Source of the DNA: Nocardioides marmorisolisilvae
Lineage (GTDB): Bacteria; Actinomycetota; Actinomycetes; Propionibacteriales; Nocardioidaceae
DNA: 64,000 nt
NCBI RefSeq assembly: GCF_031656915.1
Contig: NZ_CP134227.1
Location: forward strand, 2,418,001 to 2,482,000
Direction: 5' to 3'
Under the pieces are notes generated by a model, which saw nothing but the letters and a program-made list of their open reading frames with translations, ran no database searches and was not told the DNA's origin. The position numbers and the translations under genes were made by a program. Shown here piece after piece: positions 3,551-23,790 of the stretch. Positions within the stretch are counted from its first letter, which is position 1. The number at the start of each line of letters is the position of its first letter.

Positions 3551-3840
3551 CGGCGGTCTTCCCTACTGCCGACCTTCAGCCCGAGCCGCAGCAGCTCGGG
3601 GTCGATCGTGGCGAGGATCCGGCGCGCCTTGGCGGCGCGGCGTAGCCGATCAGACAGCGCGTCCAGGTCTGCCAGCGTGGACTCGACGTCGCCGCGCCGC
3701 ATGGTCTCGATGAGGTCGGCAACCCAGTGCCGATCGCTGGCGTCGAGCAGCCGATAGGGCGTCGCGGGCCGGTCCGCTCGAGGGTCCTGATTGTTCGTCA
3801 CGACCCCAAAGGCAGCAGCGCTGAGGTGGTGTGGACACAT
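3547..3840 (-). CDS. hypothetical charged protein of the transfer operon
   Basis: A short, charged, probably helical soluble protein of about 97 residues that I do not recognise. The C-terminal two thirds (LLDASDRHWVADLIETMRRG through DALSDRLRRAAKARRILATI) looks like two amphipathic helices and could be a protein-protein adaptor. The ATG at 3840 immediately follows the stop of the sigma-like gene (2-nt gap). A GTG start about 14 codons further in (reading VTNNQDPRAD) is a reasonable alternative, as no strong ribosome binding site marks either. The 3' end overlaps the P-loop gene by 4 nt, so it belongs to the same transcription unit. Confidence 0.5.
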   Translation of the reverse strand: MCPHHLSAAAFGVVTNNQDPRADRPATPYRLLDASDRHWVADLIETMRRGDVESTLADLDALSDRLRRAAKARRILATIDPELLRLGLKVGSREDRR

Positions 3841-3841
3841 C

Positions 3842-4624
3842 TCAGGCGGCCTCGTGCAGATAGCGCGGTACGGCGTCGCGCAGCCGGGCGAGGATGCGGT
3901 CACGTTCCCGGGAGATGGTCTTCGGGCAGACCCCGCGCCGCTCGGCCAGTTGGCGGGTCACCGCCTGGGGGCACACACCCTTGCGCATGGCCGGTCGCTG
4001 CTGGTCCTCGAAACTCTCCGCAGCCGCGAGCAGCTCGACGAGGAACTCCATCTCTGCGCGGCCAATGACCCGACTCCTCCGCGCCCAGCCCAGCAGATCG
4101 GCCAGCTCGATGGCCGCATCTGCGACACCCGGGGTCGAAAGAACCGGGCGGACGAACTCGTCCCAGCCATCCTGGTCCCGGAAATGGAGCTCTCGGATCG
4201 AGCGCTGCGGGCACAGCAACTTGACCGCCTGCGCTCGGGTATCTCGCAGGATGTTCGCGGCATAGGCGCGTCGGCGACGCTGCCAGGGAAACGTACGGAT
4301 CCGTATCCACAAGCAGGACAGCACCGTCGCATCGCTGTCCTGACACGTGTCCGCCAGACCATGCATCAGGCATCGAGCTCCAGCCTCGAGCTGATGCACC
4401 ACCGCATACGCCGCCAACTCGTCGTCGCCACCGTCATAGGCAGCGAGCCGGACAAGCGCGCCCAACGGGCCATCGGCATCCGCACCCCTCAGGCTGTGGA
4501 CCTCCGCGAGGCCGTCGTACGGCGCGAGCTCAGGCTCGGCGCTGACCCAGCGCTCCCACACCGGTCCGGACACTCGTTCGACCAGTTCGTCGGGACAGAT
4601 CCCCAGCCACACTTCGTTGCGCAC
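3842..4624 (-). CDS. sigma-factor-like HTH regulator
   Basis: A 260-residue protein whose last ~60 residues, QAVTRQLAERRGVCPKTISR followed by ERDRILARLRD, form a helix-turn-helix typical of sigma-70 region 4 or related regulators. A middle basic block (IRIRTFPWQRRRRAYAANIL) could contact nucleic acid. It is the first gene of the leftward transfer operon and would be a natural regulator of it. The GTG start at 4624 was chosen because GAAGGGAG lies 6 nt upstream; a longer reading frame continues to 4849 but runs through the repeat-rich regulatory region. It may be a true alternative sigma factor or an HTH protein that merely resembles one. Confidence 0.55.
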   Translation of the reverse strand: MRNEVWLGICPDELVERVSGPVWERWVSAEPELAPYDGLAEVHSLRGADADGPLGALVRLAAYDGGDDELAAYAVVHQLEAGARCLMHGLADTCQDSDATVLSCLWIRIRTFPWQRRRRAYAANILRDTRAQAVKLLCPQRSIRELHFRDQDGWDEFVRPVLSTPGVADAAIELADLLGWARRSRVIGRAEMEFLVELLAAAESFEDQQRPAMRKGVCPQAVTRQLAERRGVCPKTISRERDRILARLRDAVPRYLHEAA

Positions 4625-4676
4625 AGTCGTGCTCCCTTCGGTGAACTTTGCGAAGGGCTCACGCTCGGCTGGCGGC

Positions 4677-4741
4677 CTCACCACATGGCTCACCACACGG
4701 CTGACCACCGGCCCCGGCGGCAGGGGTAGATGTGTGGTGAG
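4677..4741. repeat. iterated 12-bp motif in divergent promoter region
   Basis: Three head-to-tail copies of a CTCACCACAYGG-type motif (4677-4688, 4689-4700, and a degenerate 11-bp copy at 4701-4711) are followed by an inverted copy, GTGTGGTGAG, at 4732-4741. They sit between the divergently transcribed sigma-like regulator (leftward from 4624) and the toxin-antitoxin pair (rightward from 4811). Tandem plus inverted copies at one-helical-turn spacing are typical of an operator bound cooperatively by a regulator. Which protein binds is not known. Confidence 0.6.
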
Positions 4742-4772
4742 GTGCCGCTGGGCCATCGAGGGGCGCGAAATC

Positions 4773-4810
4773 TTGACGGAATGTTGACGGGTAATGGGTA
4801 TGCTGGGGTC
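4773..4810 (+). promoter_or_regulatory. promoter/operator of the toxin-antitoxin pair
   Basis: TTGACGG occurs twice, at 4773 and 4784, exactly 11 bp apart (one helical turn). A TATGCT box at 4799-4804 ends 6 nt before the ATG at 4811, so the transcript is probably leaderless. The upstream TTGACG is 20 bp from the TATGCT box, which is long for a -35/-10 spacer. One or both TTGACGG copies may therefore be an antitoxin-binding site rather than the -35 element. Confidence 0.5.
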
Positions 4811-5149
4811 ATGTCCAGCGCATTCGCCGAGGAGGCCATCCGGATCCACCGCACCGCAGCGCTCTCGGACTCGCTGATCGCCGAAGCGGTCGGCGCCAAG
4901 CCGAGCACGGTGCGCGACTGGTTCAACGGGCGCAGTTCACCGACCGGGCCGCGGGCCCGTCGACTGGCCGAGCTCGTCGAGATCACCGATCGCCTGGCCC
5001 GGGTGATGCAGGCCCGCTACATCCCGCTCTGGCTGGTCAAACCGGTCGAGGCGCTCGATGACTACGCTCCGGTGGAGCTGATCGCCCGTGGCCAGGCACG
5101 TGAGGTGGCTCGGCTGATCAGCGCCCTGGAGTCACCCGGCGCCGCCTGA
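4811..5149 (+). CDS. Xre/MbcA-type antitoxin
   Basis: A 112-residue antitoxin. Residues ~20-45 form a helix-turn-helix (DSLIAEAVGAKPSTVRDWFN). The C-terminal part, WLVKPVEALDDYAPVELIAR followed by GQAREVARLI, matches the toxin-binding domain of the Xre/MbcA/ParS antitoxins, which cap RES-domain toxins. The partner gene starts 16 bp downstream. These antitoxins normally repress their own promoter, and the direct repeats just upstream fit that. The start at 4811 is preferred over an upstream ATG at 4730 because of the promoter position and because the conserved domain begins only after 4811. Confidence 0.8.
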   Translation: MSSAFAEEAIRIHRTAALSDSLIAEAVGAKPSTVRDWFNGRSSPTGPRARRLAELVEITDRLARVMQARYIPLWLVKPVEALDDYAPVELIARGQAREVARLISALESPGAA

Positions 5150-10481: not shown

Positions 10482-13400
10482 TTACCGTCCCATCCCCAGG
10501 ACTGTGGCCGTTCGCGGGGATGGCGGTGGTGGAGGCGCGTCGTCGTCGCTGCGGTTGAGCACTTCGCGGCTCAGATAGATCTCGGCCTCGACTGAATGAC
10601 CGCCCGCGCGGAGAGTAGCGGCGAGGTCGAGTCGGGGCTTGTCCTCGTACGGCGCGGCTGCGATGGCGATCTGACTCGCCCACGCAGCCAACTCAATGTC
10701 TCGGCTTTCAAGACCGTGGGTAGCGACGATGTGAGCGACGTCGACGATGCCCGCGGTCAGGTACTGATCAACCGGAGTCTGCGCGAGCCATCCATAGCCG
10801 CCGGGGCGCTGCTGGTCGAACGGCACGCCACCAACGAGCTCCAAGGCGGCCCTTAGATCGTCGATACCCTCGGCACCGCGCGCTTGGCCGCGGGTCCGAA
10901 GCCGTTTGAAGAGACCTGCGTCGCAGAGCATCTTGTCGATCCGGTACAGCGGCACGCCTCGTGCCTTGGCGTGCGAGGACAGCGTCGCTTCCGGAAGGTA
11001 TGGCGCACCCGTGTCGGGATCGGTGCCCAGCCACCGGCGCAGGGTGTTCATTCGGCTGTGCATCGTGTTGTTCTGGACGCCGAAGGCTTCTGCGACCTGT
11101 TCGGTGGTGGCGCCGTCGTCATGAAGGGCCAGGTACGCGACCAGCTCGATGTAGTACGCGGGCCGGCGCGCTAGATCCACGGTTCGTTCGCCGCTGGCCT
11201 GGACCTCGAGTGGGCCAAGGACACGCAGCCTGGGTCGGTGCGTCGATTCGCTGTGCCACAGGTCGAGGTCTTCGTCGAGGGTGGGATCCAGCCTGCTGAT
11301 GCGTTCGGCCGTCGCATCGTCGACCTGCGGTGCAAGCACCTCGACGTCATCAGCGGTGGTTGCAGCCGCTTGGACGTAGCGCTGGGTGGGAGCCATCAGC
11401 AGTGAGTGCTCGGGCGTATCCGCGTTCCGCGGGCTGGTGTGTTCTGGGAGTAGGGCGCCGGCGGCGTCGCTGATACCGACGGTCGCGGTGGAGCTCGAGT
11501 CCGCGGGCATTGCGGTATCGGTGCCTGGGTCGGCATCGGTGCCGGGTGTTGCATCTGGGGTGCGGGCGGGATCGGTGAGCAGGGCAGCCAGGGTTCGGCC
11601 CTGCTCGGCCGTGAGTTGGTTCGCGCTCAGGTCGGTGCCGTCGAGCAGCAGATGTCCGTGAGCGTCCAGCTCGATGGTCCGTGCCCCCGCGATCAGCTCG
11701 GCGCCGCCGGCCAGGACCAGCGCGGCGGCCGAGCGGCTCGGGCTCAGGCACAGCTCGTCGAGCAGGCCCGCGATCGCTGCCTGGTCCGGGGTGACGGCGG
11801 TGATCCGGATCTGAGGGGTCCACGCTTCTGCGCCGCGGCCGTCGAGGCGGGCTTGCAGCACGCTGGCACCGGTCATGGTGAGTGCCTCGCGCATCCGTCG
11901 TACCGCCTTGCCGAGGGATTCCAGGTCGGGGCCCTGCTCGGGGTGCAGTCGCGAAGGGTTCAGGGCGGGTAGCTCGGGCGCGAATCCACTGATCGCGATG
12001 TCGACGTCATCGGACCACTTGTTGAGCGCCAGCTCGGCGGCGATGAATCGGGCGAGGTTCTCACACCGCTCAGCGTCGCCTCCCAGGTGCAGGACTCCGG
12101 CGCATTCCAGGTCCAGCAACCAGGTGGCGCCGAAGGCATCGATGCCGACGGCGACAAGTGCCGGGTAGGGAGCGGTCGCGTCGGTCTCCTGCAATCTGAC
12201 GCTGCGGTCCAGTGACCATCTCCGATTGCCGTCGACGCTGCTCCACGGGGCGGGCGGCGGTGCCGTCGCGGGTTGATCGAGGATCAGATCGATCCGGTCG
12301 TCGGCGAGCCGCACCGCTCGTAACTCGGGAAGCTGGCCTCCTGTGCGGGCGATGTCGCTCGCGAGGTTTCGCAGGGCGAGGTCCAGGTCATGGGCCGCAG
12401 CCGCTCCGGCGGCACCGATGGAGCGGACCACGGACTCCGCGGGGACCAGGTCGTGCCGCGTCGGGGCGATGGCGCTCCCTGACCGGCGGCCGCGGAACCG
12501 CCGACGTCGTTCGGCCATGAACGCAGCCAGCACCCCGCCGGCGAGCAGCATGCCGCCACCGGCCAGGGCAGCCACCAAGCCGCTGTCATCGCTCGGTCGC
12601 GGGGCCTGGCGGGCCGCCGCATCGCGGGATGACTGCTGGCCGCCCTCGGTGGGCCGGTTCGACCGGTGAGCGCTGGGCGCGCCCGACCGCTGTGGAACGC
12701 GCTGGTTCGGTAGGGCGGCCGGCACCGGGGCGGACGGCGCTGAGTTGTCGTCGACGCGTGTGCGCCGGTCCGGGGCTTCGTCGTACCGAGGACGGACGGG
12801 GGCATTCGGCGTGGTGGTCGGCCCGCGGTGTGCGTATGCCCGTCCGTCTGGTGGCGTGGGAAAGGACGTGGGCTCGACGGGGATGCGCAGGTGCTGGCCC
12901 GGGTAGATCAGGTCCGGGTCGCTGATCCGCCCCCGGTTTGCGTCGTAGAGACGCGGCCACTCCTCGCCGTCGCCGTAGGCGGACTCGGCGATCCCCGACA
13001 GCGTGTCGCCGGCTTCCACGACAGTCCATCCGGAGCCGCTGGATGCGGCAGCCCTGCCGGTTGCGGCCCGTCCAGGGATGCGCAGCGGCCAGCCTGGCTG
13101 GAGATCCCCGGCTGGGTCGAATCGTCGACCATCAGGCATGACCCGGTGCTGGTTGAGGTCAGCGATCTCGCGCCAGCGCTCCCCGGCTCCGAGGTTGCGC
13201 TCGGCGATTGCCCACAGGCTGTCGCCCTTGCGGACCTCGACGAGTCGGCTCACCGATGGGGTCTGGTGCGACCGCCTTGCGACGGGCTGCACGCCGACAT
13301 CGGCGGAGTCCGGTCCCTGCTGCCCTGGCGCCGTTGGCTCGATGGCGGTTGTCGCCGCTGTCGCTGCACCATGCGCGGGCGGAACTGTGGTGCTGGCCAC

Positions 13401-13760
13401 GGTCGCCGTAACGCCGACGGCTACCACGGCCTGGATCAGCAGCCGGGCGAGGCTTTGTTGGCTGGCGAAGGTGCCGGGGACGGTGGCCATCCACTGTGCG
13501 GAACGACCGGCCGCGATACGAACCTCGGCGAGTGCCTCGACACACAGGCAGAGCATCGTCTGGGCCCAGAAGAGCCATACCACAACGGCAAGCAGGCCGA
13601 GCAGCGCATCGTTGGTCACCGGATCGGACCAGCTCCAGTCGGTTCCTGGCAGCGGGTTGCCGATGGTCTCGATCAGCAGTGCGGGCACGCCGAGGCCGAT
13701 CGCGACGATGATCACGAGGGCGACGACTGCCTTCAACCATGGTGCCAGGCGTTGGGTCAT
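10482..13760 (-). CDS. membrane protein with LysM domains and a C-terminal SARP/BTAD-type regulator
   Basis: A 1092-residue chimera and the last gene of the Tad-type operon. Three N-terminal hydrophobic segments lie near residues 10-30, 52-75 and 107-122. They are followed by two LysM peptidoglycan-binding domains at about 173-232 (VRKGDSLWAIAERNLG) and 243-300 (VVEAGDTLSGIAESAYG), a Pro-rich linker, another membrane segment near 392-413 (LVAALAGGGMLLAGGVLAAF), a long unassigned region, and from ~843 a winged helix (LRVLGPLEVQASGERTVDLA) plus a BTAD-like helical repeat domain ending near 1080. The layout suggests a wall sensor linked to a cytoplasmic regulator. It overlaps the upstream gene by 4 nt. 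Similar proteins accompany Tad loci in actinobacteria; DNA binding is inferred, not shown. Confidence 0.75.
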   Translation of the reverse strand: MTQRLAPWLKAVVALVIIVAIGLGVPALLIETIGNPLPGTDWSWSDPVTNDALLGLLAVVVWLFWAQTMLCLCVEALAEVRIAAGRSAQWMATVPGTFASQQSLARLLIQAVVAVGVTATVASTTVPPAHGAATAATTAIEPTAPGQQGPDSADVGVQPVARRSHQTPSVSRLVEVRKGDSLWAIAERNLGAGERWREIADLNQHRVMPDGRRFDPAGDLQPGWPLRIPGRAATGRAAASSGSGWTVVEAGDTLSGIAESAYGDGEEWPRLYDANRGRISDPDLIYPGQHLRIPVEPTSFPTPPDGRAYAHRGPTTTPNAPVRPRYDEAPDRRTRVDDNSAPSAPVPAALPNQRVPQRSGAPSAHRSNRPTEGGQQSSRDAAARQAPRPSDDSGLVAALAGGGMLLAGGVLAAFMAERRRRFRGRRSGSAIAPTRHDLVPAESVVRSIGAAGAAAAHDLDLALRNLASDIARTGGQLPELRAVRLADDRIDLILDQPATAPPPAPWSSVDGNRRWSLDRSVRLQETDATAPYPALVAVGIDAFGATWLLDLECAGVLHLGGDAERCENLARFIAAELALNKWSDDVDIAISGFAPELPALNPSRLHPEQGPDLESLGKAVRRMREALTMTGASVLQARLDGRGAEAWTPQIRITAVTPDQAAIAGLLDELCLSPSRSAAALVLAGGAELIAGARTIELDAHGHLLLDGTDLSANQLTAEQGRTLAALLTDPARTPDATPGTDADPGTDTAMPADSSSTATVGISDAAGALLPEHTSPRNADTPEHSLLMAPTQRYVQAAATTADDVEVLAPQVDDATAERISRLDPTLDEDLDLWHSESTHRPRLRVLGPLEVQASGERTVDLARRPAYYIELVAYLALHDDGATTEQVAEAFGVQNNTMHSRMNTLRRWLGTDPDTGAPYLPEATLSSHAKARGVPLYRIDKMLCDAGLFKRLRTRGQARGAEGIDDLRAALELVGGVPFDQQRPGGYGWLAQTPVDQYLTAGIVDVAHIVATHGLESRDIELAAWASQIAIAAAPYEDKPRLDLAATLRAGGHSVEAEIYLSREVLNRSDDDAPPPPPSPRTATVLGMGR

Positions 13761-14167
13761 GGGGTGTCTTCCGTGATCGCAGTGGCGGTAGCGCTCTCGT
13801 GGATGGGAAGCGATCCGATGCCGATCACGCTCAGGATCCCGGTGCGCAAGGTCCCGTTGACCGTGACCCTCACGGTGGCTCCATGAACGCTCACGGTTCC
13901 GTGCATCCCGGCCGCGCGGAGGTAGTCGGAGCCGCGTTGTCGCGCCTGCGCCGCGGCGACGTAGTCATGACCGGACCGCACGGATGCACCAGACAGTGCA
14001 TCGGCGGCGGTCCGAGCGGCCTGGCCGGCTGCGCGGGCCGAGGCCAGACATGCGTCGACGAGTCGGCCGCCGTCGACGACGAGGCCCAGCAGCACGGTGA
14101 AGGCGCCCGCGATGATCAGCAGAGCCCATATCGATGCGCTTCCCTGGTCGGGTCTCTGGGCGTTCAT
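13757..14167 (-). CDS. TadG/Rv3654c-like pilus-assembly protein
   Basis: A 136-residue protein with a short polar leader, then SASIWALLIIAGAFTVLLGL and VVDGGRLVDACLASARAAGQ. This is the single hydrophobic helix plus small-residue-rich amphipathic helix typical of TadG-like proteins of Flp pilus loci. The rest is a small extracytoplasmic domain (HGTVSVHGATVRVTVNGTLR). It is coupled to both neighbours by 4-nt overlaps, upstream to a TadE-like gene and downstream to the LysM/BTAD gene. Probably a minor pilus or wall-associated component; its exact role in actinobacterial Tad systems is not established. Confidence 0.65.
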   Translation of the reverse strand: MNAQRPDQGSASIWALLIIAGAFTVLLGLVVDGGRLVDACLASARAAGQAARTAADALSGASVRSGHDYVAAAQARQRGSDYLRAAGMHGTVSVHGATVRVTVNGTLRTGILSVIGIGSLPIHESATATAITEDTP

Positions 14168-14613
14168 CGCAGTGTCCGGTGCTGTTCGATTGGGACCACT
14201 GCGGATGCGGTGAAGTCGCGGTGGCCGGGTAGTCCGAATCCGGTGATGTCGGAGAGGTCGGCGGTGCAGGTGACCAGAGCTTGGATGTGGCCGCCGGGCC
14301 TGAAGGCGTGGGTGTCGATGCGCACCGTCAGGTGGGCGCAGGAACGCCCGTGTTCGGCGAAGCTGCGGCGTGCGGCCGCTTCGCCGGCGGCGGATGCGGC
14401 ACTTGAGTCCTGGGTGAGTGAGGCAGCCCGGGCTGCGGCGTAGGCCGCCGCATTGGACTGTCCCCGGGCATCGACATAGCGGGCGCCCGCCGCAATCACC
14501 AGGATCGCTGCGACCAGGATCGGGGTGAGCAGGACCAACTCGATCGACATCGAGCCGTTCTCGCTACGCCGACCCTTCCGCCCCTCGGCAGTGCAGCCGA
14601 TCACTGGGCTCAT
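14164..14613 (-). CDS. TadE-like pseudopilin
   Basis: A 149-residue protein with the TadE-type N-terminus, GSMSIELVLLTPILVAAILV, in which a Glu five residues into the hydrophobic helix recalls prepilin-like cleavage sites (S-IE). The helix is followed by ARYVDARGQSNAAAYAAARA and an extracytoplasmic domain with two Cys (RSCAHL and LVTCTAD). The ATG at 14613 overlaps the upstream stop by 4 nt. A shorter product starting at the internal Met before SIEL is possible. Expected to be processed by a prepilin peptidase and to act with the Flp-like pilin. No such peptidase gene lies in this window. Confidence 0.65.
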   Translation of the reverse strand: MSPVIGCTAEGRKGRRSENGSMSIELVLLTPILVAAILVIAAGARYVDARGQSNAAAYAAARAASLTQDSSAASAAGEAAARRSFAEHGRSCAHLTVRIDTHAFRPGGHIQALVTCTADLSDITGFGLPGHRDFTASAVVPIEQHRTLR

Positions 14614-15038
14614 GGTTGGCCGCCCTGTGGTTGGGCGGCTGGGACGAAATGTTCGACCGGTCCTTCGAGATGGACGCGCACGCGCACGGGCAGGAACGGG
14701 ATGAACTCCTGGGTCCGGCCCGTGATCGTGATCGACGCCCTGTCCGGGCTGCGCGTCACCGATACACCGGTGTTGTCGATACCCGGGCCAAGGTGGGTCA
14801 GGTAGTCACGAGTCACGGCCCGGGCGCGGCTGGCTGATCCGTCGTACGCACTGGCTGCCGCAAGACCCTGCTCGGCGGCCGCGGTGGCGATGTGCTGGGC
14901 ATAGCTGCGCAGGGCGTACTGGAGCATCAGCAAAAGGACCAGGATCAGCATGCCGATGACCAGCATGAACTCGATCGCCACCGCCCCGCTCTGGTCACGG
15001 GCCGTGTGGTGTCGCATCGTGGGTGTGCGCATCGGCAT
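14610..15038 (-). CDS. TadE-like pseudopilin
   Basis: A 142-residue TadE-family protein with the motif DQSGAVAIEFMLVIGMLILV: the G-A-V-A-I-E-F signature, with Glu at position five after the processing site, followed by a hydrophobic helix. Then comes YALRSYAQHIATAAAEQGLA, the amphipathic helix usual in the family, and a ~70-residue outer domain. It lies 4 bp downstream of the Flp-like pilin gene and overlaps the next TadE-like gene by 4 nt. Likely a minor pilin of the Tad-type apparatus. Confidence 0.7.
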   Translation of the reverse strand: MPMRTPTMRHHTARDQSGAVAIEFMLVIGMLILVLLLMLQYALRSYAQHIATAAAEQGLAAASAYDGSASRARAVTRDYLTHLGPGIDNTGVSVTRSPDRASITITGRTQEFIPFLPVRVRVHLEGPVEHFVPAAQPQGGQP

Positions 15039-15042
15039 GGAG

Positions 15043-15246
15043 TCAGGGAGAGCCGAGCTTCTGGGTCTCTCCGGTGACGTAGGACTTGACCGCGGTCACC
15101 GCGATGGTGGCGATGGCGATCACGCCGAGCGCAACCAGCAGCCACTCCAGGGCCGTGAATCCTGCTTCGTTGCGGCCGGCGTGGCGGGCTGCGATTCTCG
15201 CGCGGAGCCAGCCCACCGCGAGTCGATAGGTGTCAATTGGGTCCAC
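15043..15246 (-). CDS. Flp-like pilin (short prepilin)
   Basis: A 67-residue protein that looks like the major pilin of the Tad apparatus: a short basic leader, then NEAGFTALEWLLVALGVIAI, where the G-F-T-A-L-E motif resembles a prepilin cleavage site with Glu at mature position five, then a single hydrophobic helix and a short polar tail (VKSYVTGETQKLGSP). Size and layout match Flp pilins. The GTG start at 15246 is chosen because AGGGGAG lies 4 nt ahead. A longer reading from 15342 has no such site and would run into the gene above. It lies 55 bp after tadC, the only sizeable gap in the operon, so it may have extra translation or its own promoter. Confidence 0.7.
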   Translation of the reverse strand: MDPIDTYRLAVGWLRARIAARHAGRNEAGFTALEWLLVALGVIAIATIAVTAVKSYVTGETQKLGSP

Positions 15247-15301
15247 GGTTCTCCCCTTTCCGAGATGTCGTTCGCCCCGTGGTTGATGTCGACGTGTGGG
15301 A

Positions 15302-16204
15302 TCAGCCCGAGAACAGCCGGGCGACTGATGGGTAGAGCTCATAGCTGAGGAAGACGAAGACCATGGCGATCAGGGCGAACTTCATCGACTCGGTCGCTCG
15401 GTTGGCGTCTGCCTCCGCATCGGCGACCCGCTGGTCGCGCAGCGTGGTGGCACGGGCGACAAGGGTCGCCCTCACCTTCGCGCCGTCCTCGTTGGCCAGT
15501 TCCAGCGCGCCTTCGAGGTCGCACAGCTCCGGCACCCCGATCCGGGCTCCCAGCCTGCCCAGCGCCACCCATGGAGTGATGCCGGAGAACCTGGCTCCCT
15601 CGATGGCGTCGCGGATCTCGGTGAAACCCCACCCGGTGCCGATCGCCGCCGCAGCGGGCAGTGCCTCGGCGTGACCTCGTCCCGCCTGCAGCGACATCGC
15701 CACCAGGTCCAGGTAGATCGACAAGGTACGGCGGAACTCCGCCCGCCGGCGGCGCGCCTTCTCGATCAGTTCACGATGCGCGACCAACACCATTGCCGCA
15801 GCAAGGCCCAGGCCGATCGCGACTCCGGCCGACAGCGGCAGCCCGACGCCCATGCCGTCGCCAAGGCCGACGATCACGATCGGCCCGAGGAAACCGGCGC
15901 CCACCAGCGCCAGCAGCCTGCTCAGATGCTCCTCGAGCCTGATCCCGGCCGCCGCAAGGTCCTGGCCCAGGTGTGGCAACCGGCTGTCACGCCGGGTGAC
16001 CTGCTCGGCGATGCGCTCGACCAGCCGCTGCGTCCAGGTGGTTGCCGGCGGCGCGGAAAGCTGCTGAACGCGCGAGGCCCGGGCCCGGGCCTGATCCCAG
16101 CGGCCCACCCCCGCGACCAGGTCCGTCCTCGGTGGAACCGCCAGGCGGTAGCCGTGGACCAGGGCGACCGCGATCAGCGCGCCAGCCAGCATGAACCAGA
16201 TCAT
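15302..16204 (-). CDS. tadC: TadC-like pilus assembly membrane protein
   Basis: A 300-residue type II secretion F-domain protein (GspF/TadC). It has an N-terminal membrane helix (MIWFMLAGALIAVALVHGYR), paired central helices (LLALVGAGFLGPIVIVGLGD and VAIGLGLAAAMVLVAHREL), the cytoplasmic F domain (RRTLSIYLDLVAMSLQAGRG, FSGITPWVALGRLG) and a final helix (FALIAMVFVFLSYELYPSVA). TadB and TadC form the inner-membrane platform on which the ATPase acts. The ATG at 16204 shares one base with the stop of tadB (TGATG). Length is usual for the family. Confidence 0.8.
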   Translation of the reverse strand: MIWFMLAGALIAVALVHGYRLAVPPRTDLVAGVGRWDQARARASRVQQLSAPPATTWTQRLVERIAEQVTRRDSRLPHLGQDLAAAGIRLEEHLSRLLALVGAGFLGPIVIVGLGDGMGVGLPLSAGVAIGLGLAAAMVLVAHRELIEKARRRRAEFRRTLSIYLDLVAMSLQAGRGHAEALPAAAAIGTGWGFTEIRDAIEGARFSGITPWVALGRLGARIGVPELCDLEGALELANEDGAKVRATLVARATTLRDQRVADAEADANRATESMKFALIAMVFVFLSYELYPSVARLFSG

Positions 16205-17094
16205 CAGCGGCCTCCGAGCGCGGCGAGACGCGGCTTGTAGGAGGCGATCTCGGTGAACTGGTCGGCATCGGTCAAGAACCGAGGCTGGGTCTCCGAGCGA
16301 GCCAGCGACCGCATCCGCATGAACGCGCCCAGGAACATCAACACCAGCAATGCCAGGACCAACTGGCCTATCGGCGAGGAGTACGGCGCCACCCAGCCGT
16401 GCGCGAAGACCGCCTGTACGGCGGCGAACCCCACCACACAGCCAGCGATGCGCTGAGCTTGGTGCCGCAACGCAGCCCGCTCATGTTCGACCTTGCGACG
16501 CATCTCCAGCTCGGAGCGTTCCGAGGAGGCCAACGCGGTGAGAATCCGCTCCAACCCGCCCGCCCGCTGGCGGGCATTCAACGTCAAGGCCGCCACCACG
16601 AGATCGGCTGCCGGGTCGTCCACATCGTCAGCGAAGTACGCAAGCGCCTCGGGCAGTGGGACACGGCCATCGAGCCGAGCGGTCAGATCACGCAGTGGCC
16701 GATCCAACAGCGATGGCGCAGCCGCCACCGTCGCCGGCAACGCCTGCTCCAGCCCAGCAGCTGCGCTGGCTGTATCGCGCAGCGATTCGGTCCAGATAGC
16801 AAGCGCCTCGATCTTGGCCAGCTGGTGGCGACCCTCGCTCGCGCCACCGAAGAGCTTCGGCCAAATGACCACCAGCACGACCGCGGCCGCCCCCGCTACT
16901 GGCCAACGTGTCACGCCAAGCACCACAAGTCCTACCAGCGGCGCGACCATGACCCGCCGCGGCCAACGGCTCCGGGGTCGAGAGCCGCGCGCCATCATCC
17001 CGGGCAGGAGGCTCTGTCCCAGTGCGAGGCGAGCCAATGCCACCAGACCTGCGCAGACAACCGCGACCGCGGCCGCGAATCCAGCCGCTTGCAT
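16204..17094 (-). CDS. tadB: TadB-like pilus assembly membrane protein
   Basis: A 296-residue F-domain protein paired with TadC. N-terminal helices (FAAAVAVVCAGLVALARLAL, VMVAPLVGLVVLGVTRWPVA) precede the F domain with the usual IEALAIWTESLRDTASAAAG signature, and two C-terminal helices (GCVVGFAAVQAVFAHGWVAP, IGQLVLALLVLMFLGAFMRM) follow. The start is set at the ATG at 17094, one base inside the tadA stop; the frame is open further upstream but there overlaps tadA. The product forms the membrane platform with TadC and is expected to couple ATP hydrolysis to pilin extraction. Confidence 0.8.
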   Translation of the reverse strand: MQAAGFAAAVAVVCAGLVALARLALGQSLLPGMMARGSRPRSRWPRRVMVAPLVGLVVLGVTRWPVAGAAAVVLVVIWPKLFGGASEGRHQLAKIEALAIWTESLRDTASAAAGLEQALPATVAAAPSLLDRPLRDLTARLDGRVPLPEALAYFADDVDDPAADLVVAALTLNARQRAGGLERILTALASSERSELEMRRKVEHERAALRHQAQRIAGCVVGFAAVQAVFAHGWVAPYSSPIGQLVLALLVLMFLGAFMRMRSLARSETQPRFLTDADQFTEIASYKPRLAALGGR

Positions 17095-18443
17095 CACGAC
17101 CACCCCGCTGCCGGCGGTGCCGTCCCGGTGACCGGCCGCCATCCGGCAGCGACCAGGTCCTCGTGGCAGCGCACCTGCACTCCGGTACGGCGGGCCGCCT
17201 GCTGCCCGACATCGAGGCCCCACAACTCGTTGGTTGCCAGGTGCCCCTCGTCGGTGATGCCAGCGACTTCGCGGACCGCCTCCACCACGCGACGCTGCAA
17301 CGCCTCGCCGCTGCTGCTTCCCTGGCGGCGTTGGCGGTGGATGAACACGATGAAGTCCAGACCCGAGGCGACCAGCCGGACCGTCGCCTCCCAAGGCAGC
17401 CGTTCGGGCGCCTGGATCGCATAGGTGGCGATCTTGTGCACCACATCGACCGAAGAGTTCGCGTGGATCGTCGACAGTGATCCGTCGTTGCCTTGGGTCA
17501 TCGCGTTGAGCATGGTGACGACCTCGTCGCCGAGCACCTCCCCCACGATCACCCTCGAGGGGTTCATCCGCAGGGTGTCGCGCACAAGCTCAGCCATCGT
17601 GACCATCCCCGCGCCCTCGCCGTTGGGCAGCCGCTCCTCGAACGCGATCGCATTCGGATGCGCCTCGATGTCCTCGTCGAGGCCCAACTCCAAGGACCGC
17701 TCCACGGTCAAGATCCGCTCCTCGGGATCGATCTCGCTTGCGAGCGCGCGCAGCAGTGTGGTCTTCCCGGCACTGGTTCCTCCCGCGACCATCACGTTCT
17801 TGCGCGCACGCACCGCGGCAGCCAGGAACTCGGCAAGCTCCTCGTCCAGGGTGCCCAAGCCAATCAGATCCTTCAGCCGCACCCGTGTGTGCCGGTGCCG
17901 GCGGATCGAGACCACAGGCTCACGGGTCACCGACTGCACCGCATACAGGCGCGATCCGTCCGGGAGCCTCAGATTCACCCGCACGTTGGCGACATCGAAG
18001 GCGCGTGCAGACAGGCCCTCGTGGGCTGCCAAGGTCTGAATCGTCTCGATCAGCTCTTCATTGGAGGCCGCGACCGGGCGCACCTTCGCGACCGACCCGT
18101 CGGCGTACTCCACGAACACGTTGCGATAGCCATTGATGTCGATGTTCTCGACGCGATCGTCGTCCAGGAGCAGCTGCAAGCCACCGGCCCCGAAAAGCCG
18201 GGCTTCCAAGGCCTCCACCAGATCCTGTCGCGCTTCCCACGTCAGCCCCTCGGCACCCTGCTCCACCAGGGAGGAGTCATAGTCGGAGACCACGCGCTGG
18301 ACTAGAGCCTTGCCGTGTTGACGGGCATCGTCCCCAGACAGCACCGGCGCACCTGCCTCGCGGCGCCTTTGCACGTCTCGTTGCCGCAGCTCTCCGAGCT
18401 GGGCCTGCAGCCGCTTGATCAACAGGTAGTCCAACTCCGCCAT
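17094..18443 (-). CDS. tadA: TadA/CpaF-type secretion ATPase
   Basis: A 449-residue hexameric ATPase that powers pilus assembly. An N-terminal domain rich in charged helices (IKRLQAQLGELRQRDVQRRR) precedes the catalytic core: Walker A VMVAGGTSAGKTTLLRALAS, the Asp box EERILTVERSLELGLDEDIE, Walker B RMNPSRVIVGEVLGDEVVTM, and the His box MTQGNDGSLSTIHANSSVDV. All key residues are present, so it should be active. The ATG at 18443 shares one base with the cpaE stop. CpaF-like ATPases also resemble VirB11, and in this element it could serve the conjugation apparatus as well. Confidence 0.88.
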   Translation of the reverse strand: MAELDYLLIKRLQAQLGELRQRDVQRRREAGAPVLSGDDARQHGKALVQRVVSDYDSSLVEQGAEGLTWEARQDLVEALEARLFGAGGLQLLLDDDRVENIDINGYRNVFVEYADGSVAKVRPVAASNEELIETIQTLAAHEGLSARAFDVANVRVNLRLPDGSRLYAVQSVTREPVVSIRRHRHTRVRLKDLIGLGTLDEELAEFLAAAVRARKNVMVAGGTSAGKTTLLRALASEIDPEERILTVERSLELGLDEDIEAHPNAIAFEERLPNGEGAGMVTMAELVRDTLRMNPSRVIVGEVLGDEVVTMLNAMTQGNDGSLSTIHANSSVDVVHKIATYAIQAPERLPWEATVRLVASGLDFIVFIHRQRRQGSSSGEALQRRVVEAVREVAGITDEGHLATNELWGLDVGQQAARRTGVQVRCHEDLVAAGWRPVTGTAPPAAGWS

Positions 18444-19249
18444 CACGCCTTCTCCCCAACCCTGGCCGGGGCGGTACGCCGGCTGGGCTCGATCCGACTG
18501 CCCAGCTCGTGCCACAGCTCACGCGACGAGCGAAGCAGCGGGCTGCGTGCCAACCGTCCGGTTGGGTCCTCACCCGCCTCCAGCCGTTCCACCGCACCTT
18601 GATCCCAGGCCACGAATCCGCAGCCGACCACCAGAGGCCCGGCAGGCGACTCGGAGAGAATCCGAGCCACATCCGCTGCGTCGGCCACCCCATGCCTGGC
18701 GGCGGTCACCAGGACCGGGAACAGCCGGGGCGCCGCGCCCCTGCTGGCTGCCAGGGCTGGCACCAATCGGCTCGCCCGTTCGCGCAGTCGAATCACCGAG
18801 GCGGTGTCGGTCCTCGCCACCAGCAGCACAACGTCGGCCCGGGCAGCCACAGGAAGCATCGGCGATGCCGCATGCAGACGCCCCACGTCGACCAGAACCT
18901 GCCCAGATGAAGCTGCCAACGCGCGCCCCAGGGGCTCGAAGTCCATCAGGGTGCCGGCCTGCTCAGCCACAAGCGGACCCGGCACCACCGAAACACGGTT
19001 GTTGACCTCGTGGGCATACCGCTCGACCAGATCCGGCGCCTGCACCGTGCGCGCCGCCGAGGACAACGTCAGCACCGTAGGCGCTTCAGGAAACGCCGTA
19101 CCCGCCCTTGTGCGCAGACGCAACGCAAGGTCACCACCGAACAGGTCTGCCTCGACGAGCACACTCCCAGAGGTGCGCGCCGACGCCAGCGCAAGGGCGG
19201 TCGTGGTCGTTCCCGGGGAGCCCTTGTCCGAACACAGTGCCACCAGCAT
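18443..19249 (-). CDS. CpaE/TadZ-like localisation ATPase
   Basis: A 268-residue ParA/MinD-like protein. The N-terminus, LVALCSDKGSPGTTTTALAL, carries a deviant Walker A (K-G-S-P-G-T-T-T), followed by VLVEADLFGGDLALRL with the switch Asp. Then come QVLVDVGRLHAASPMLPVAA and VVLLVARTDTASVIRLRERA. TadZ/CpaE proteins place the Tad machine on the membrane, often at a pole. The gene is coupled by one-base overlaps to cpaB above and tadA below. No receiver domain is present, as is common in the shorter actinobacterial versions. Confidence 0.75.
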   Translation of the reverse strand: MLVALCSDKGSPGTTTTALALASARTSGSVLVEADLFGGDLALRLRTRAGTAFPEAPTVLTLSSAARTVQAPDLVERYAHEVNNRVSVVPGPLVAEQAGTLMDFEPLGRALAASSGQVLVDVGRLHAASPMLPVAARADVVLLVARTDTASVIRLRERASRLVPALAASRGAAPRLFPVLVTAARHGVADAADVARILSESPAGPLVVGCGFVAWDQGAVERLEAGEDPTGRLARSPLLRSSRELWHELGSRIEPSRRTAPARVGEKA

Positions 19250-19947
19250 CAGCGATCGCCCCCCAACGGCGCCTGCACCACCGCAACCCGACCTGCTGCC
19301 GCGAACGCGGCGACACGGTCCGCCTCCGCCCGCGACACCACCAGGGTCAGCCGGGATCCACCGGACTCGAGCCGCGTCATCGATCGCACCGTTGCCGACC
19401 CGGCTAACACTGCCGGGTTCTGGAGCGTCTGGGGATTGCTCGCGTCCCCGGAGGGCGGGACTGCCAGCACCTCGACTACGTCGCCCGGCGACATGCCCGC
19501 TGGTGAACGCGACGCATCCACAGCCACGCCCACCACCCGCTGCGACGGTCCAGGGACCGGCTGGTCCGTGACCATCTCGGGGGTCAACAGCTCCCCGGGC
19601 ACCAGCCCGACCGCCGTCGTGTGGCCGACCAGCCGACCGACATCGCCCACCGCAACCGCATCCTTCACGCCCGCGACCTCCACCGTCCTCAGATCACTGC
19701 GCTGCAGAACCGATCCGGCTGGCACGGCCGTGCGCACCTGCCAGACCTCCACACGGTCGCTCTTCTGCTGCCACAGCCAGCCGGCAAGCAGGGCAGCAAG
19801 GACGACCACCATCACCGTGCCCGCCCACTGGCCATACCTGCGTGGCACCCGCGGCAGGTCGTGGCCTCGGCCGCCCAGTCCCACCCGCTCCCCATCAACC
19901 GGTGCAGTGAGCCCCGTGGGTGGTGCTGTGTGCTTGCTCGTCGTCAT
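19249..19947 (-). CDS. CpaB/RcpC-like SAF-domain protein
   Basis: A 232-residue protein with a Pro-rich cytoplasmic start, one membrane helix (WAGTVMVVVLAALLAGWLW) and a SAF domain: VWQVRTAVPAGSVLQRSDLR and GHTTAVGLVPGELLTPEMVT. The C-terminus is an RcpC-like domain (SPAGMSPGDVVEVLAVPPSG; RLTLVVSRAEADRVAAFAAA). CpaB proteins link the pilus machine to the cell envelope. It overlaps its upstream neighbour by 4 nt. In Gram-positive bacteria there is no secretin partner, so a role in wall anchoring is inferred. Confidence 0.75.
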   Translation of the reverse strand: MTTSKHTAPPTGLTAPVDGERVGLGGRGHDLPRVPRRYGQWAGTVMVVVLAALLAGWLWQQKSDRVEVWQVRTAVPAGSVLQRSDLRTVEVAGVKDAVAVGDVGRLVGHTTAVGLVPGELLTPEMVTDQPVPGPSQRVVGVAVDASRSPAGMSPGDVVEVLAVPPSGDASNPQTLQNPAVLAGSATVRSMTRLESGGSRLTLVVSRAEADRVAAFAAAGRVAVVQAPLGGDR

Positions 19948-20864
19948 TGGACCAGCACTGTCTGTCGCTGCAGGACCCGCAGGCGACCCGAGCCGGCGGG
20001 TGCCTCAATCACCCCGAGAGTGCCCTCGCGGCGAGCGCATCTGCCCCGGCACGTCCAATCCACCTGGTAGCCGATTCGCGCGGTCACATGGAACATGCGA
20101 CCAGGCTGGCCGTCCGACGTGACCGAGTAGGCGTAGCTGCACGTGGTCTGTGCCGCATCCGACATGCCGTCATGCCACGCCCGGCCGGGCCCCTCGCACG
20201 TCCGCACCTGCGGGCCCATGTCCCACAGCACCTTTGTCGGCCGGGCCGTCACCGACACCGACGTGCCGCCCACCGAGACCGTCTTCCTCAACGTGGCCCA
20301 CTGCGGCTTTGGCAGCCATAGCCAGTTCTGGACACCCACGTAGGTGGGGTCCGGATTGGCGGGCGCGATCTGGACGTACGCAGTGCGCAGCGGCATCACC
20401 GCCAGCGCATGCTTTGCCAGGGCGCCAGGATCGATTTCGGCTGCCGGGGCTCCCCCCGGTGGGATCCAGAAGACGACGACCGGGCTCGTGTCGTCGGCCA
20501 GTCCGCACATCCAGAGGGATCCGTCCGTGTGGCCGTGCCAGTAAGGATTGCTCTTGGGCAGATCCTTCACTGGGTGGATCCAACATTGGTGCCCCGCACT
20601 CCAGGTGCCCAGATCAGTCACGCACGGGATCACTGATCCATCGCGCCGGTGGCACGGGGCAGCATCCCCCGTGGGGGCCGCATGCGGGGTGTCGTTGCTC
20701 GATGGCCTTCCGGGCGCCGACACAGGAATGCAGATGGCGCCGCCTCCAGGCTGTGCCGATGGCACTTCCCCGGTCGGACAGCCATCGGCCGACGCCCGGA
20801 ACGGGGCAAGGGCGAAGGATGCCACGACGAGAGCGGGCACGACTATCGCAAGATGCCTCAGCAT
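19944..20864 (-). CDS. exported protein with WLW...WDMG domain, Tad-operon associated
   Basis: A 306-residue exported protein. A signal peptide (LRHLAIVVPALVVASFALAP, cleavage near ASA-DG) is followed by a Cys-rich region and then VGVQNWLWLPKPQWATLRKT and VTARPTKVLWDMGPQVRTCE, a combination common in uncharacterised proteins near actinobacterial Tad-type and conjugation loci, and suggestive of an Ig/PKD-like fold. The many Cys (at least nine) point to disulfides outside the cell. The ATG at 20864 lies 7 nt inside the preceding gene. Perhaps an adhesin or pilus-associated wall protein; function unknown. Confidence 0.6.
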   Translation of the reverse strand: MLRHLAIVVPALVVASFALAPFRASADGCPTGEVPSAQPGGGAICIPVSAPGRPSSNDTPHAAPTGDAAPCHRRDGSVIPCVTDLGTWSAGHQCWIHPVKDLPKSNPYWHGHTDGSLWMCGLADDTSPVVVFWIPPGGAPAAEIDPGALAKHALAVMPLRTAYVQIAPANPDPTYVGVQNWLWLPKPQWATLRKTVSVGGTSVSVTARPTKVLWDMGPQVRTCEGPGRAWHDGMSDAAQTTCSYAYSVTSDGQPGRMFHVTARIGYQVDWTCRGRCARREGTLGVIEAPAGSGRLRVLQRQTVLVQ

Positions 20865-21445
20865 GTCGTCCCCAGACGTTCGCGAAACACCCGCCACCAA
20901 CTCTCGGGCGGCGTGCGCACCATGACCACCTTCACCAGGTGCGGCGTTGCGGTCGGTTGGGGGACGGGGGTGCCGTGCTGGATGACCTTCACGCCCCGGG
21001 CGACTCCACACACGCGGAGCGTGATCGCGCCGCTGCCGTCAGGCGCAACCCCGACCTTCCCGGGGCGGATGCTGATCGTGCGGCTGCGACCAACCACGCG
21101 AAGGTGCGCCTGTTGACGCTGGTCCAGCCTCGCCCAATAGCTGCGCCAGTCTGCCGTGTACTTCTTGTAGAACGTTCGTGCTCTCGAAGTGGCCTTCCCT
21201 TTGGCGAGGAGGACCTCCTGCGTGCGGCTGAACGACTCATAGCTGTCGACCGCCGCCGCGTACGCCTTTCGCTCCCGTGCCGAATAACCGGCGAGGTAGG
21301 CAGGACTGGATGTCGTCGGCGACGGCGTACCCGCAGCGCTCGGCATCGACGGCTGTCTGGACGTCGCGGAGTCAGGATCGCCTACCCCGCACGAGACACA
21401 CGTCGCCACCATGAATGCCACCACGACAACGGTCCTGCGTCGCAT
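20858..21445 (-). CDS. putative exported lipoprotein, first gene of the Tad-type operon
   Basis: A 195-residue protein starting with MRRRTVVVVAFMVATCVSCG, a basic stub plus hydrophobic segment ending in Cys at positions 16 and 19, compatible with a lipoprotein signal though the lipobox is not canonical. A Ser/Pro/Thr-rich spacer follows, then a folded domain (YSARERKAYAAAVDSYESFS; TADWRSYWARLDQRQQAHLR; ESWWRVFRERLGTTC). This resembles small exported proteins with an NTF2-like helical hairpin that carry ExxY/SYE-type motifs. The ATG at 21445 is fixed by GGAGGAG about 6 nt upstream. It opens the operon that ends with the LysM/BTAD gene. Confidence 0.6.
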   Translation of the reverse strand: MRRRTVVVVAFMVATCVSCGVGDPDSATSRQPSMPSAAGTPSPTTSSPAYLAGYSARERKAYAAAVDSYESFSRTQEVLLAKGKATSRARTFYKKYTADWRSYWARLDQRQQAHLRVVGRSRTISIRPGKVGVAPDGSGAITLRVCGVARGVKVIQHGTPVPQPTATPHLVKVVMVRTPPESWWRVFRERLGTTC

Positions 21446-21990: not shown

Positions 21991-22194
21991 GTGATCAACG
22001 TGACTGTCCAGGACCGTGAACAGCTCTCGGTAACCGATGTCTGCAGCGAACTCGGCATCGCGCGCTCGACCTTCTATGACTGGAGGGCGGCAAGGAAGGC
22101 GCCGCGCTGCATCAAGCTGCCCAACGGCAATATCCGAATCCGGCGCGGCGAGCTGGAGCGCTGGCTCGAGGCACACGAGGAGGACATCCCGTGA
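21991..22194 (+). CDS. xis: excisionase-like HTH protein
   Basis: A 67-residue MerR/excisionase-type protein: LSVTDVCSELGIARSTFYDW, a winged-helix DNA-binding motif, followed by the wing KLPNGNIRIRRGELERWLEA. It overlaps the integrase start by 4 nt (GTGA), the usual xis-int arrangement in actinobacterial elements, and should direct excision versus integration. The start is GTG at 21991 (AAAGG 4-5 nt upstream); a GTG at 22000 with AGGTGA upstream is equally plausible and would remove three residues. Confidence 0.8.
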   Translation: MINVTVQDREQLSVTDVCSELGIARSTFYDWRAARKAPRCIKLPNGNIRIRRGELERWLEAHEEDIP

Positions 22195-23699: not shown

Positions 23700-23735
23700 C
23701 CCCGGCATAACCGCAGGTCAGAAGCCCTTTTCCGC
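23683..23735. terminator. bidirectional hairpin between int and tRNA-Tyr
   Basis: Left arm 23683-23701 and right arm 23716-23735 pair almost perfectly around a 14-nt loop; each arm carries four A or T residues at its outer part (AAAAGGGC / GCCCTTTT), followed by CCTGACC / GGTCAG. It can end transcription of int (rightward) and of tRNA-Tyr (leftward). The left arm lies inside the last codons of int. Confidence 0.7.
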
Positions 23736-23790
23736 TTCGGTGGCAGGTGCAGGATTCGAACCTGCGTAGGCTATGCCGGCTGATTTACAG
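23736..23790. other. probable attachment site (att) at the 3' half of tRNA-Tyr
   Basis: Tyrosine integrases of this type usually recombine in the anticodon-to-3' part of a tRNA gene. The integrase gene ends next to the tRNA 3' end and the ICE genes lie on that side, so one att junction should fall within this interval. The matching repeat should be at the left end of the element, which is outside the window, so exact borders cannot be set. Confidence 0.55.

What the first reader, a model, noticed from the sequence alone, without database searches (positions are those of the whole stretch)
10482..21445. Tad/Flp-type pilus operon carried by a conjugative element
Twelve leftward genes, nearly all linked by 1-8 nt overlaps, encode CpaB, CpaE, TadA, TadB, TadC, a 67-residue Flp-like pilin, two TadE-like and one TadG-like protein, two exported proteins and a LysM/BTAD chimera. 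They sit between T4SS genes (1-4,624) and the xis-int-tRNA junction, so they belong to the mobile element. Tad pili are normally chromosomal adhesion or uptake systems; here they may act as a mating-pair or surface-attachment apparatus working with the T4SS. No prepilin peptidase is visible in the window, so processing may rely on the host.
Basis: partly seen in the sequence, partly recalled or inferred. Interest (0 to 1): 0.75.

Follow-up and report, generated by a model that had tools for sequence, protein, structure and literature searches.

The report
Pilus operon built into conjugative element
A soil actinobacterium's large mobile DNA element carries what looks like a full set of genes for a thin surface pilus next to its DNA-transfer machine, an arrangement that recurs in related mobile elements and suggests the pilus helps donor cells grip recipients, although this has not been tested.

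Summary
[quoted passage not shown] The ICE carries TrwC relaxase, VirD4, VirB4 and VirB6-like genes. The one prepilin peptidase found in the genome is elsewhere.

The linkage recurs. In 149 family genomes, 37 of 66 VirB4-like matches have a TadA within 45 kb, all 37 on the same strand; about 6 expected. At 55% identity or more: 21 of 25. Ten sampled chromosomal Tad loci show no T4SS nearby. Plasmids pNOCA01 and pTC1 have near-identical T4SS proteins (about 94-95% from P2 to VirB4) but Tad proteins only 31-52% identical, changing inside the LysM/BTAD gene.

Best reading: a mating-pair pilus for a Gram-positive T4SS, exchangeable as a cassette. Function is inferred. Against: related T4SSs lack Tad, and a small two-TM protein could be a T4SS pilin.

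The parts
10482..13760 (-). LysM / BTAD-like membrane protein (1092 aa, 4 hydrophobic stretches); the seam between the Tad and T4SS modules
   Evidence: LysM Pfam 58.7 bits, 2 stretches; homologue on pKRAD01 annotated 'bacterial transcriptional activator domain'; hydrophobic stretches; identity step in homologues
13757..14167 (-). TadG-like prepilin-like protein
   Evidence: no Pfam match; G/SASIW at the start of a hydrophobic stretch; profile of 41 loci
14164..14613 (-). TadE-like pseudopilin
   Evidence: Pfam TadE 29.8 bits; motif G/SMSIEL
14610..15038 (-). TadE-like pseudopilin
   Evidence: Pfam TadE 30.8 bits; motif G/AVAIEF
15043..15246 (-). Flp-like major pilin, 67 aa
   Evidence: motif AG/FTALEW followed by a hydrophobic stretch; no Pfam match above cut-off
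15302..16204 (-). TadC platform protein
   Evidence: T2SSF 23.4 bits, just under cut-off; synteny
16204..17097 (-). TadB platform protein
   Evidence: T2SSF 15.8 bits on the longer ORF 16204-17394; synteny
17094..18515 (-). TadA ATPase (start GTG 18515 or ATG 18443)
   Evidence: T2SSE 2e-32; TIGR03819 208 bits, under its cut-off of 373
18443..19249 (-). CpaE/TadZ-like protein
   Evidence: no Pfam or NCBIfam match; position and similarity to two other Tad loci of the genome
19249..19947 (-). CpaB/RcpC
   Evidence: SAF 25.7 bits, RcpC 20.1 bits
19944..20864 (-). exp1: exported protein of unknown fold
   Evidence: profile match 179-399 bits in 41 of 41 loci; low-confidence model, no fold match
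20858..21445 (-). exp2: predicted lipoprotein with NTF2-like domain
   Evidence: lipobox-like VSC/G (read by eye); AlphaFold model with pLDDT 90 or more for 145 of 195 residues; NTF2-like matches
108..1574 (-). VirB6/TrbL-like channel protein
   Evidence: TrbL 22.2 bits, under cut-off
1567..2403 (-). P2: one-TM T4SS-linked protein (possible VirB8 position)
   Evidence: homologues 94% identical between pTC1 and pNOCA01; one hydrophobic stretch; no Pfam match
2403..2687 (-). small two-TM protein with two conserved cysteines; VirB2-like candidate
   Evidence: three sequences aligned
2684..3550 (-). P-loop protein of the module
   Evidence: weak AAA/MipZ matches; synteny in some loci
3547..3903 (-). 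small protein of the module
   Evidence: position as pTC1 'small1'
3842..4849 (-). conserved module protein (working label 'RelA', name not tested)
   Evidence: synteny in some loci
21991..22194 (+). excisionase-like HTH protein
   Evidence: HTH_17 43.5 bits
22191..23699 (+). tyrosine integrase
   Evidence: Phage_integrase 40.1 bits
23675..23790 (.). right attachment repeat (116 bp, exact copy at contig 2273462-2273577)
23739..23822 (-). tRNA-Tyr(GTA), integration target

Best explanation
A tRNA-Tyr ICE of about 168 kb in a Nocardioides-like actinobacterium carries a Tad pilus operon as part of its conjugation module. Shown: position inside the element, relaxase, coupling-protein and T4SS genes in it, and recurrent co-oriented Tad-T4SS linkage in other genomes and plasmids. 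Inferred: prepilins are exported and cut after glycine by the host's single A24 peptidase; TadA/B/C polymerise Flp; CpaB, the NTF2-like lipoprotein exp2 and the LysM protein anchor the fibre in the wall close to the VirB4/VirB6 channel; the fibre grips recipients and brings the walls together so that the TrwC-bound strand passes through the T4SS. Because near-identical T4SSs carry very different Tad modules, the Tad part is probably the exchangeable contact face of the machine.
For: Element borders and content. Linkage: 37 of 66 VirB4 matches with TadA within 45 kb, 37 of 37 on the same strand, about 5.7 expected; 21 of 25 at 55% identity or more. In the own genome three Tad loci with the same core genes each have a VirB4 match 19, 29 or 26 kb and a TrwC match 67, 4 or 40 kb away. 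Ten of ten sampled unlinked chromosomal Tad loci show no T4SS genes within about 20 kb. Plasmids: pNOCA01, pTC1 and 3 of 3 further records with VirB4 at 58% or more that were tested. TadA and VirB4 tree distances correlate (r 0.44, 39 loci, 0 of 2000 permutations as high). Cassette exchange. Background: Gram-positive T4SSs are described as lacking VirB2 and VirB5 (PMC12857230; VirB2 also PMC12102498) and the R64 type IV pilus as crucial for its transfer, with a limit I did not see in full (PMC12102498; passages). A single unlinked prepilin peptidase serves Tad in Micrococcus (PMC4322843, passages).
Against: No functional data. 29 of 66 VirB4 matches have no listed TadA within 45 kb. Ten of these were read out (about 40 kb to each side for eight of them; less for G106 and G063) and showed no Tad. 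Nine of ten sampled plasmids with VirB4 under 48% identity have no TadA match, so this kind of T4SS can do without Tad. exp1 and exp2 are not conjugation-specific: weak relatives sit by Streptosporangiaceae Tad loci with no T4SS match within about 10 kb, and weak exp1 matches occur within the 40 kb read around 7 of the 10 unlinked loci. A small two-TM protein (window 2403-2687) may be the T4SS's own pilin. The empty integration site could not be shown.
Confidence: 0.6

Rival explanations
1. Passenger trait: the Tad pilus is cargo that helps the host colonise surfaces or form biofilms, and the element profits only through host fitness.
For: Tad on the Cutibacterium linear plasmid is treated as an adhesion factor (PMC5696575, PMC9119108; passages). 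Related T4SSs occur without it. Many family genomes have Tad loci with no VirB4 match nearby.
Against: In the paired loci Tad keeps its orientation and lies upstream of the T4SS in ICE-like loci and plasmids, unlike what is expected of free cargo.
Confidence: 0.22
2. TadA, or the Tad platform, is used directly by the T4SS as a VirB11-like motor or pseudopilus piston, with no long external pilus.
For: TadA is the only T2SSE/VirB11-family match inside the element and matches VirB11 and TrbB models (140 and 125.6 bits, under cut-off).
Against: Pseudopilins and the other Tad genes are kept, not TadA alone, and the Tad block can differ greatly on a nearly unchanged T4SS, which argues against tight fit with the channel.
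Confidence: 0.1
3. DNA uptake: the element's Tad pilus serves natural transformation, as in Micrococcus luteus.
For: tad genes are required for transformation in M. luteus (PMC4322843, passages).
Against: Linkage is to DNA-export genes; no competence-protein family was hit among the element genes scanned, though not every gene was scanned.
Confidence: 0.05

Closest known systems
Tad/Flp (type IVc) pilus loci of actinobacteria, e.g. Micrococcus luteus tad
   Same: Tad genes with Flp and TadE-like pilins; single unlinked prepilin peptidase (PMC4322843, passages; own genome)
   Different: Here on an ICE next to a T4SS, with a LysM/BTAD gene and the exp2-exp1 pair; role in transfer proposed, not shown. 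M. luteus sequences were not compared here
Cutibacterium acnes linear plasmid tad locus
   Same: tad plus VirB4-like, FtsK-like and TcpC-like genes on one replicon; the authors left open whether the pili are linked to conjugation (PMC5696575, passages)
   Different: Linear plasmid, not a tRNA ICE; its sequence was not compared here
pNOCA01 (Nocardioides sp. JS614) and pTC1 (Paenarthrobacter aurescens TC1)
   Same: Same order exp2-exp1-CpaB-CpaE-TadA-B-C-Flp-TadE-TadE-TadG-LysM, then T4SS genes
   Different: Plasmids; Tad proteins 31-52% identical to each other while T4SS proteins from P2 to VirB4 are about 94-95%; pNOCA01 has an insertion between tadB and tadC
Thin pilus of IncI plasmids R64/TP114 (type IVb pilus for mating)
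   Same: A type IV filament encoded by a conjugative element and important for transfer (R64: PMC12102498 passage; TP114: PMC9045228, listing and start of abstract)
   Different: Enterobacterial plasmid pili, TP114's made of PilS and PilV; ours is a Tad pilus in a monoderm with no tip adhesin identified

Membership tests
Tad/Flp pilus system | TadA-type secretion ATPase | tested here: met
   T2SSE 2e-32 over cut-off; lies with actinobacterial Tad ATPases in the tree
Tad/Flp pilus system | two single-domain platform proteins TadB and TadC | tested here: inconclusive
   two adjacent T2SSF-like genes, both under the Pfam cut-off, but matching annotated T2SSF genes in plasmids
Tad/Flp pilus system | small Flp prepilin with G/xxxxE site and hydrophobic stretch | tested here: met
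   67 aa, AG/FTALEW; W replaces the usual Y; no Pfam Flp_Fap match
Tad/Flp pilus system | TadE/F pseudopilins | tested here: met
   two TadE proteins over cut-off
Tad/Flp pilus system | TadZ/CpaE | tested here: inconclusive
   no Pfam or NCBIfam match; position and similarity to other Tad loci of the genome
Tad/Flp pilus system | prepilin peptidase available | tested here: met
   one A24 match in the genome, at 323962, outside the element
Tad/Flp pilus system | pili on the cell surface | not testable with these tools
   needs microscopy or pilin shearing
T4SS-type ICE | integrase at a tRNA with flanking direct repeats | tested here: met
   116-bp exact repeat, int next to tRNA-Tyr
T4SS-type ICE | relaxase, VirD4 and VirB4 | tested here: met
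   TrwC 303 bits, TraG-D_C 83.5 bits; VirB4 P-loop match weak (16.9 bits, under cut-off) but its neighbour is SCO6880-family at 387.6 bits
T4SS-type ICE | empty site in relatives | tested here: inconclusive
   tRNA-Tyr beside yajQ in 11 of 12 relatives, but their other side does not match our left flank
T4SS-type ICE | excision and transfer | not testable with these tools
   needs PCR and mating
VirB8/NTF2-like T4SS proteins (for exp2) | NTF2-like fold in an exported, membrane-anchored protein | tested here: met
VirB8/NTF2-like T4SS proteins (for exp2) | specific relation to VirB8 | tested here: inconclusive
   TraM (3wz3) and CagV (6iqt) among Foldseek matches at E 0.009 and 0.017, ranked below other proteins; no VirB8 row among the 50 shown
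conjugative type IV pilus (R64-like role) | needed for mating | not testable with these tools
   needs deletion and mating assay

The most novel reading that the evidence does not exclude
A widespread class of actinobacterial conjugation machine is a two-part device: a constant VirB4/VirB6 T4SS and an exchangeable Tad pilus cassette that supplies cell-to-cell contact. The LysM/BTAD wall protein is the coupling piece, its N-terminal half going with the pilus and its C-terminal half with the T4SS, and cassette exchange retunes which neighbours are gripped.
Probability: 0.3. Interest if true: 0.82.

Novelty: new variant of a known kind. Interest (0 to 1): 0.62.

Why it matters
How monoderm conjugation machines find and hold recipients is poorly known; two papers say Gram-positive T4SSs lack the VirB2-type pilin (PMC12857230, PMC12102498; passages). 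A recurrent, co-oriented Tad operon in actinobacterial conjugative elements gives a concrete, deletable candidate for that step. It also bears on the question left open in PMC5696575, whether plasmid-borne Flp pili are linked to conjugation. The very different Tad modules on a nearly constant T4SS (pTC1 and pNOCA01) would be a natural experiment on recipient choice.

Tried and rejected
Empty site: searching the genus with the left-flank protein found relatives of 53% identity at most, none lying next to yajQ, and reading 12 relatives beside yajQ showed no match to our left flank. I do not claim an empty site.

exp1 and exp2 as conjugation-specific markers: first thought likely, then rejected, because weak exp1 matches (66-97 bits) and a few very weak exp2 matches lie after the LysM gene in Streptosporangiaceae Tad loci with no T4SS match within about 10 kb, and weak exp1 matches occur around 7 of the 10 unlinked loci, two of these loci at 70-89 bits. 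exp1 fold search gave nothing usable (best E 0.13, mean pLDDT 67). PDB sequence search with the exp2 profile found nothing.

Tad as a general feature of actinobacterial T4SSs: rejected, see nine of ten sampled plasmids without a TadA match (the ten were chosen from 54 listed records with VirB4 under 48%, of 267 records with a match) and the unpaired VirB4 loci. An unsampled one, NZ_CP109080.1, holds both a TadA and a VirB4 match, about 65 kb apart.

'T4SS has no pilin of its own': not claimed, because of the two-TM protein at 2403-2687.

Limits of my counts. The VirB4 tree held paired loci plus nine unpaired ones that I had fetched; the four unpaired matches at 55% or more were not in it, so that all its high-identity rows are Tad-linked is by selection. 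Of these four, two are on contigs of a draft (G092, not read out) and two are pieces of one split gene about 10 kb from the end of the G111 contig. In one search the row G051 was labelled unlinked; one search shows VirB4-N, VirB6 and P2 on its contig, so the label was wrong. Counts for Flp, TadE and TadG are unreliable: several hits are overlong or shared ORFs. The TadA list was cut short by the tool, so pairs are a lower bound. The chance expectation treats genomes as independent. One search flagged many pairs with TadA less alike than VirB4, because of untrimmed TadA ORFs; the trimmed recount is. Checkpoint note 1 says 38 pairs; the scripted count is 37. pKRAD01 and the Kitasatospora plasmid were taken as T4SS-linked from their annotation only. 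On the Ornithinimicrobium plasmid TadA comes in two pieces. One of six listed plasmid records with VirB4 at 58% or more (H45, second Pimelobacter) was not tested.

Papers: ten searches. In their listings and in the passages read I found no description of a conserved Tad-T4SS module across actinobacterial ICEs. The library is open-access only; Mihasan and Brandsch 2016 on Arthrobacter plasmid T4SSs, cited in PMC6305408 (passages), was not looked up.


Full report
What is there. The window lies at 2418001-2482000 of a single-contig genome of 4,228,226 bases. The closest named TadA relatives are in Nocardioides and other Nocardioidaceae, so I call the host Nocardioides-like. Twelve minus-strand genes at 10482-21445 read, in transcription order: exp2, exp1, CpaB, CpaE, TadA, TadB, TadC, Flp, TadE, TadE, TadG-like, LysM/BTAD. 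Pfam curated cut-offs support TadA, both TadE, SAF and LysM. The other names rest on order, prepilin motifs and synteny. TadC, TadB and RcpC match below cut-off; CpaE, TadG-like and Flp have no accepted family match.

The element. An 85-base tRNA-Tyr query found a second, partial copy at 2273526, which extends to an exact 116-bp direct repeat: contig 2273462-2273577 and 2441675-2441790, the latter being window 23675-23790. The distance between copies is 168,213 bp. The integrase and an HTH excisionase-like gene lie at the right copy. Between the repeats are a 2048-aa TrwC relaxase with helicase and primase domains and a VirD4, a VirB4 preceded by an SCO6880-family protein, an M23 peptidase, a TrbL-like VirB6, the Tad operon, and much catabolic cargo. 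So the operon is element-borne. I could not show an empty site: in 11 of 12 relatives tRNA-Tyr also sits near yajQ, but their other flank does not match ours.

Prepilin processing. The only A24 prepilin peptidase found in the genome is at 323962, outside the element. One unlinked peptidase serving tad loci is the situation described for Micrococcus luteus (PMC4322843, passages). On the Kitasatospora plasmid and pKRAD01 an A24 or prepilin peptidase is annotated beside the Tad genes.

Is the linkage more than one genome's accident? In the own genome two further Tad loci with the same core genes, at 1.20 and 1.09 Mb, lie 29 and 26 kb from VirB4-like matches and 4 and 40 kb from TrwC matches. In 149 genomes drawn from the family, TadA relatives of some kind are nearly universal (146 of 149), so presence alone says nothing; position does. 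Of 66 VirB4-like matches in 46 genomes, 37 have a listed TadA within 45 kb on the same contig, 37 of 37 on the same strand, 36 of 37 with the nearest TadA upstream. The odd one has another TadA upstream, at 298501 of its contig. About 5.7 pairs are expected if VirB4 were placed at random (rough, since related genomes are not independent and the TadA list was cut). At 55% identity or more it is 21 of 25; the four misses are on two contigs of one draft and in two pieces of one split gene near a contig end. Conversely, of 61 listed TadA matches at 48% identity or more, 48 have no VirB4 match nearby. Ten of these, in single-contig genomes, were read out and all ten show no T4SS genes within about 20 kb: ordinary chromosomal Tad loci. 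Another of the 48 (G051) proved to be T4SS-linked when read.

Where the linkage fails. Ten VirB4 loci without listed TadA were read out. None had Tad within about 20 kb, and nine were read further (eight to about 40 kb on each side) with none there either. Some of them are close in the VirB4 tree to linked ones. On plasmids, TadA was found on 3 of 3 tested records with VirB4 at 58% or more (besides pNOCA01 and pTC1) but on only 1 of 10 sampled with VirB4 under 48%. So Tad is tied to part of this T4SS family, not to all of it.

Module anatomy. Across 41 loci (36 from the family search, the window's own, four plasmids) the core genes keep their order as far as detected. exp1 was found in 41 of 41 and exp2 in 40 of 41, a few exp2 scores being weak. 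exp1 usually lies directly before CpaB; in the seven-locus group that includes our 1.09-Mb locus, and on the Kitasatospora plasmid, it lies downstream instead. exp2 is a predicted lipoprotein; its model is confident for the folded part and NTF2-like, a fold shared by VirB8 proteins and by many unrelated ones. exp1 has no confident fold. Weak relatives occur beside some Streptosporangiaceae Tad loci and around several unlinked family loci, so they are Tad accessories rather than conjugation markers.

Constant T4SS, changing pilus. pTC1 and pNOCA01 proteins from P2 to VirB4 are 93.8-94.9% identical and the two-TM protein 99.1%. RelA-like, small1 and ATPase-like are 78-88%, LysM 58.5%, and exp2 to TadG 31-52%; Flp was not detected. 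Along the LysM/BTAD protein (an ORF somewhat longer than annotated) the identity changes from 24-49% over the first 500 residues to 67-84% over the next 600. A third locus, G140, shows the same contrast. Elsewhere Tad and T4SS move together: tree distances of TadA and VirB4 correlate (r 0.44 over 39 loci, 0 of 2000 permutations as high), and among 180 pairs of loci with VirB4 at 70% or more the median TadA deficit is 6 points. Only 15 of the 180 differ by 30 points or more, among them all three pairs of pTC1, pNOCA01 and G140. This fits a unit kept together, with occasional replacement of one Tad by another. Fast divergence under selection is not excluded, but the outliers and the step inside one gene favour exchange.

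How it most likely works. Shown: genes, borders, linkage, exchange pattern. Inferred from known Tad and T4SS biology: Flp and pseudopilins are cut by the host peptidase and polymerised by TadA/B/C; the fibre leaves through the wall with CpaB, exp2 and the LysM protein as anchors; it holds recipients while the VirD4/VirB4/VirB6 channel passes the TrwC-bound strand. Two papers state that Gram-positive T4SSs lack VirB2-type pilins, and one that the R64 type IV pilus is crucial for its transfer (PMC12857230, PMC12102498; passages). A caution: the module has its own small two-TM protein (window 2403-2687) that could be VirB2-like, though Pfam does not say so.

Against what is known. Tad loci on plasmids are known (PMC6668835, passages). 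tad together with conjugation genes on the Cutibacterium acnes linear plasmid was described with the remark that a functional link is unclear (PMC5696575, passages), and a tad-bearing C. acnes linear plasmid is reported transferable (PMC9119108, passages). A 2011 survey counted 17 putative T4SS-type ICEs in actinobacteria; 'tada' does not occur in its main text, its one 'pilus' passage concerns Gram-negative bacteria, and its one 'tad' place was not shown to me (PMC3218068). I therefore call this a new variant of a known kind: the parts that I did not find described are the linkage in ICEs, its breadth and order, and the exchange of the pilus part on a constant T4SS.

Noticed in passing
contig 2273462-2441790 (mostly left of the window): The ICE looks like a 168-kb catabolic island: molybdopterin dehydrogenases, Rieske oxygenase, luciferase-like monooxygenase, AtuA-like protein, thiolase, AMP-binding enzyme, glutamine synthetase-like gene.
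   Followed up: partly
contig 2365998-2372144 (L011:7998-14144): A 2048-aa ORF with relaxase, helicase, DnaG-type primase and Toprim domains.
   Followed up: no
own genome, 8 places: Eight TrwC relaxase matches; three lie 4-67 kb from Tad loci with VirB4, the others suggest further mobile or mobilisable elements.
   Followed up: partly
window 12477-12572: ARAGORN calls a tRNA-Pro inside the LysM gene; probably spurious.
   Followed up: no
window 2403-2687: Two-TM protein with conserved cysteines next to P2, its homologues 99% identical between pTC1 and pNOCA01; VirB2-like candidate.
   Followed up: partly
window 5793-6566: ORF with an APH phosphotransferase-family match between the T4SS genes and the Tad operon.
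   Followed up: no
window 7977-8897: ORF with a DUF981 match between T4SS and Tad genes.
   Followed up: no
L061 22330-25590 (pNOCA01): Three genes on the other strand, one an integrase, interrupt the Tad operon between tadB and tadC.
   Followed up: no
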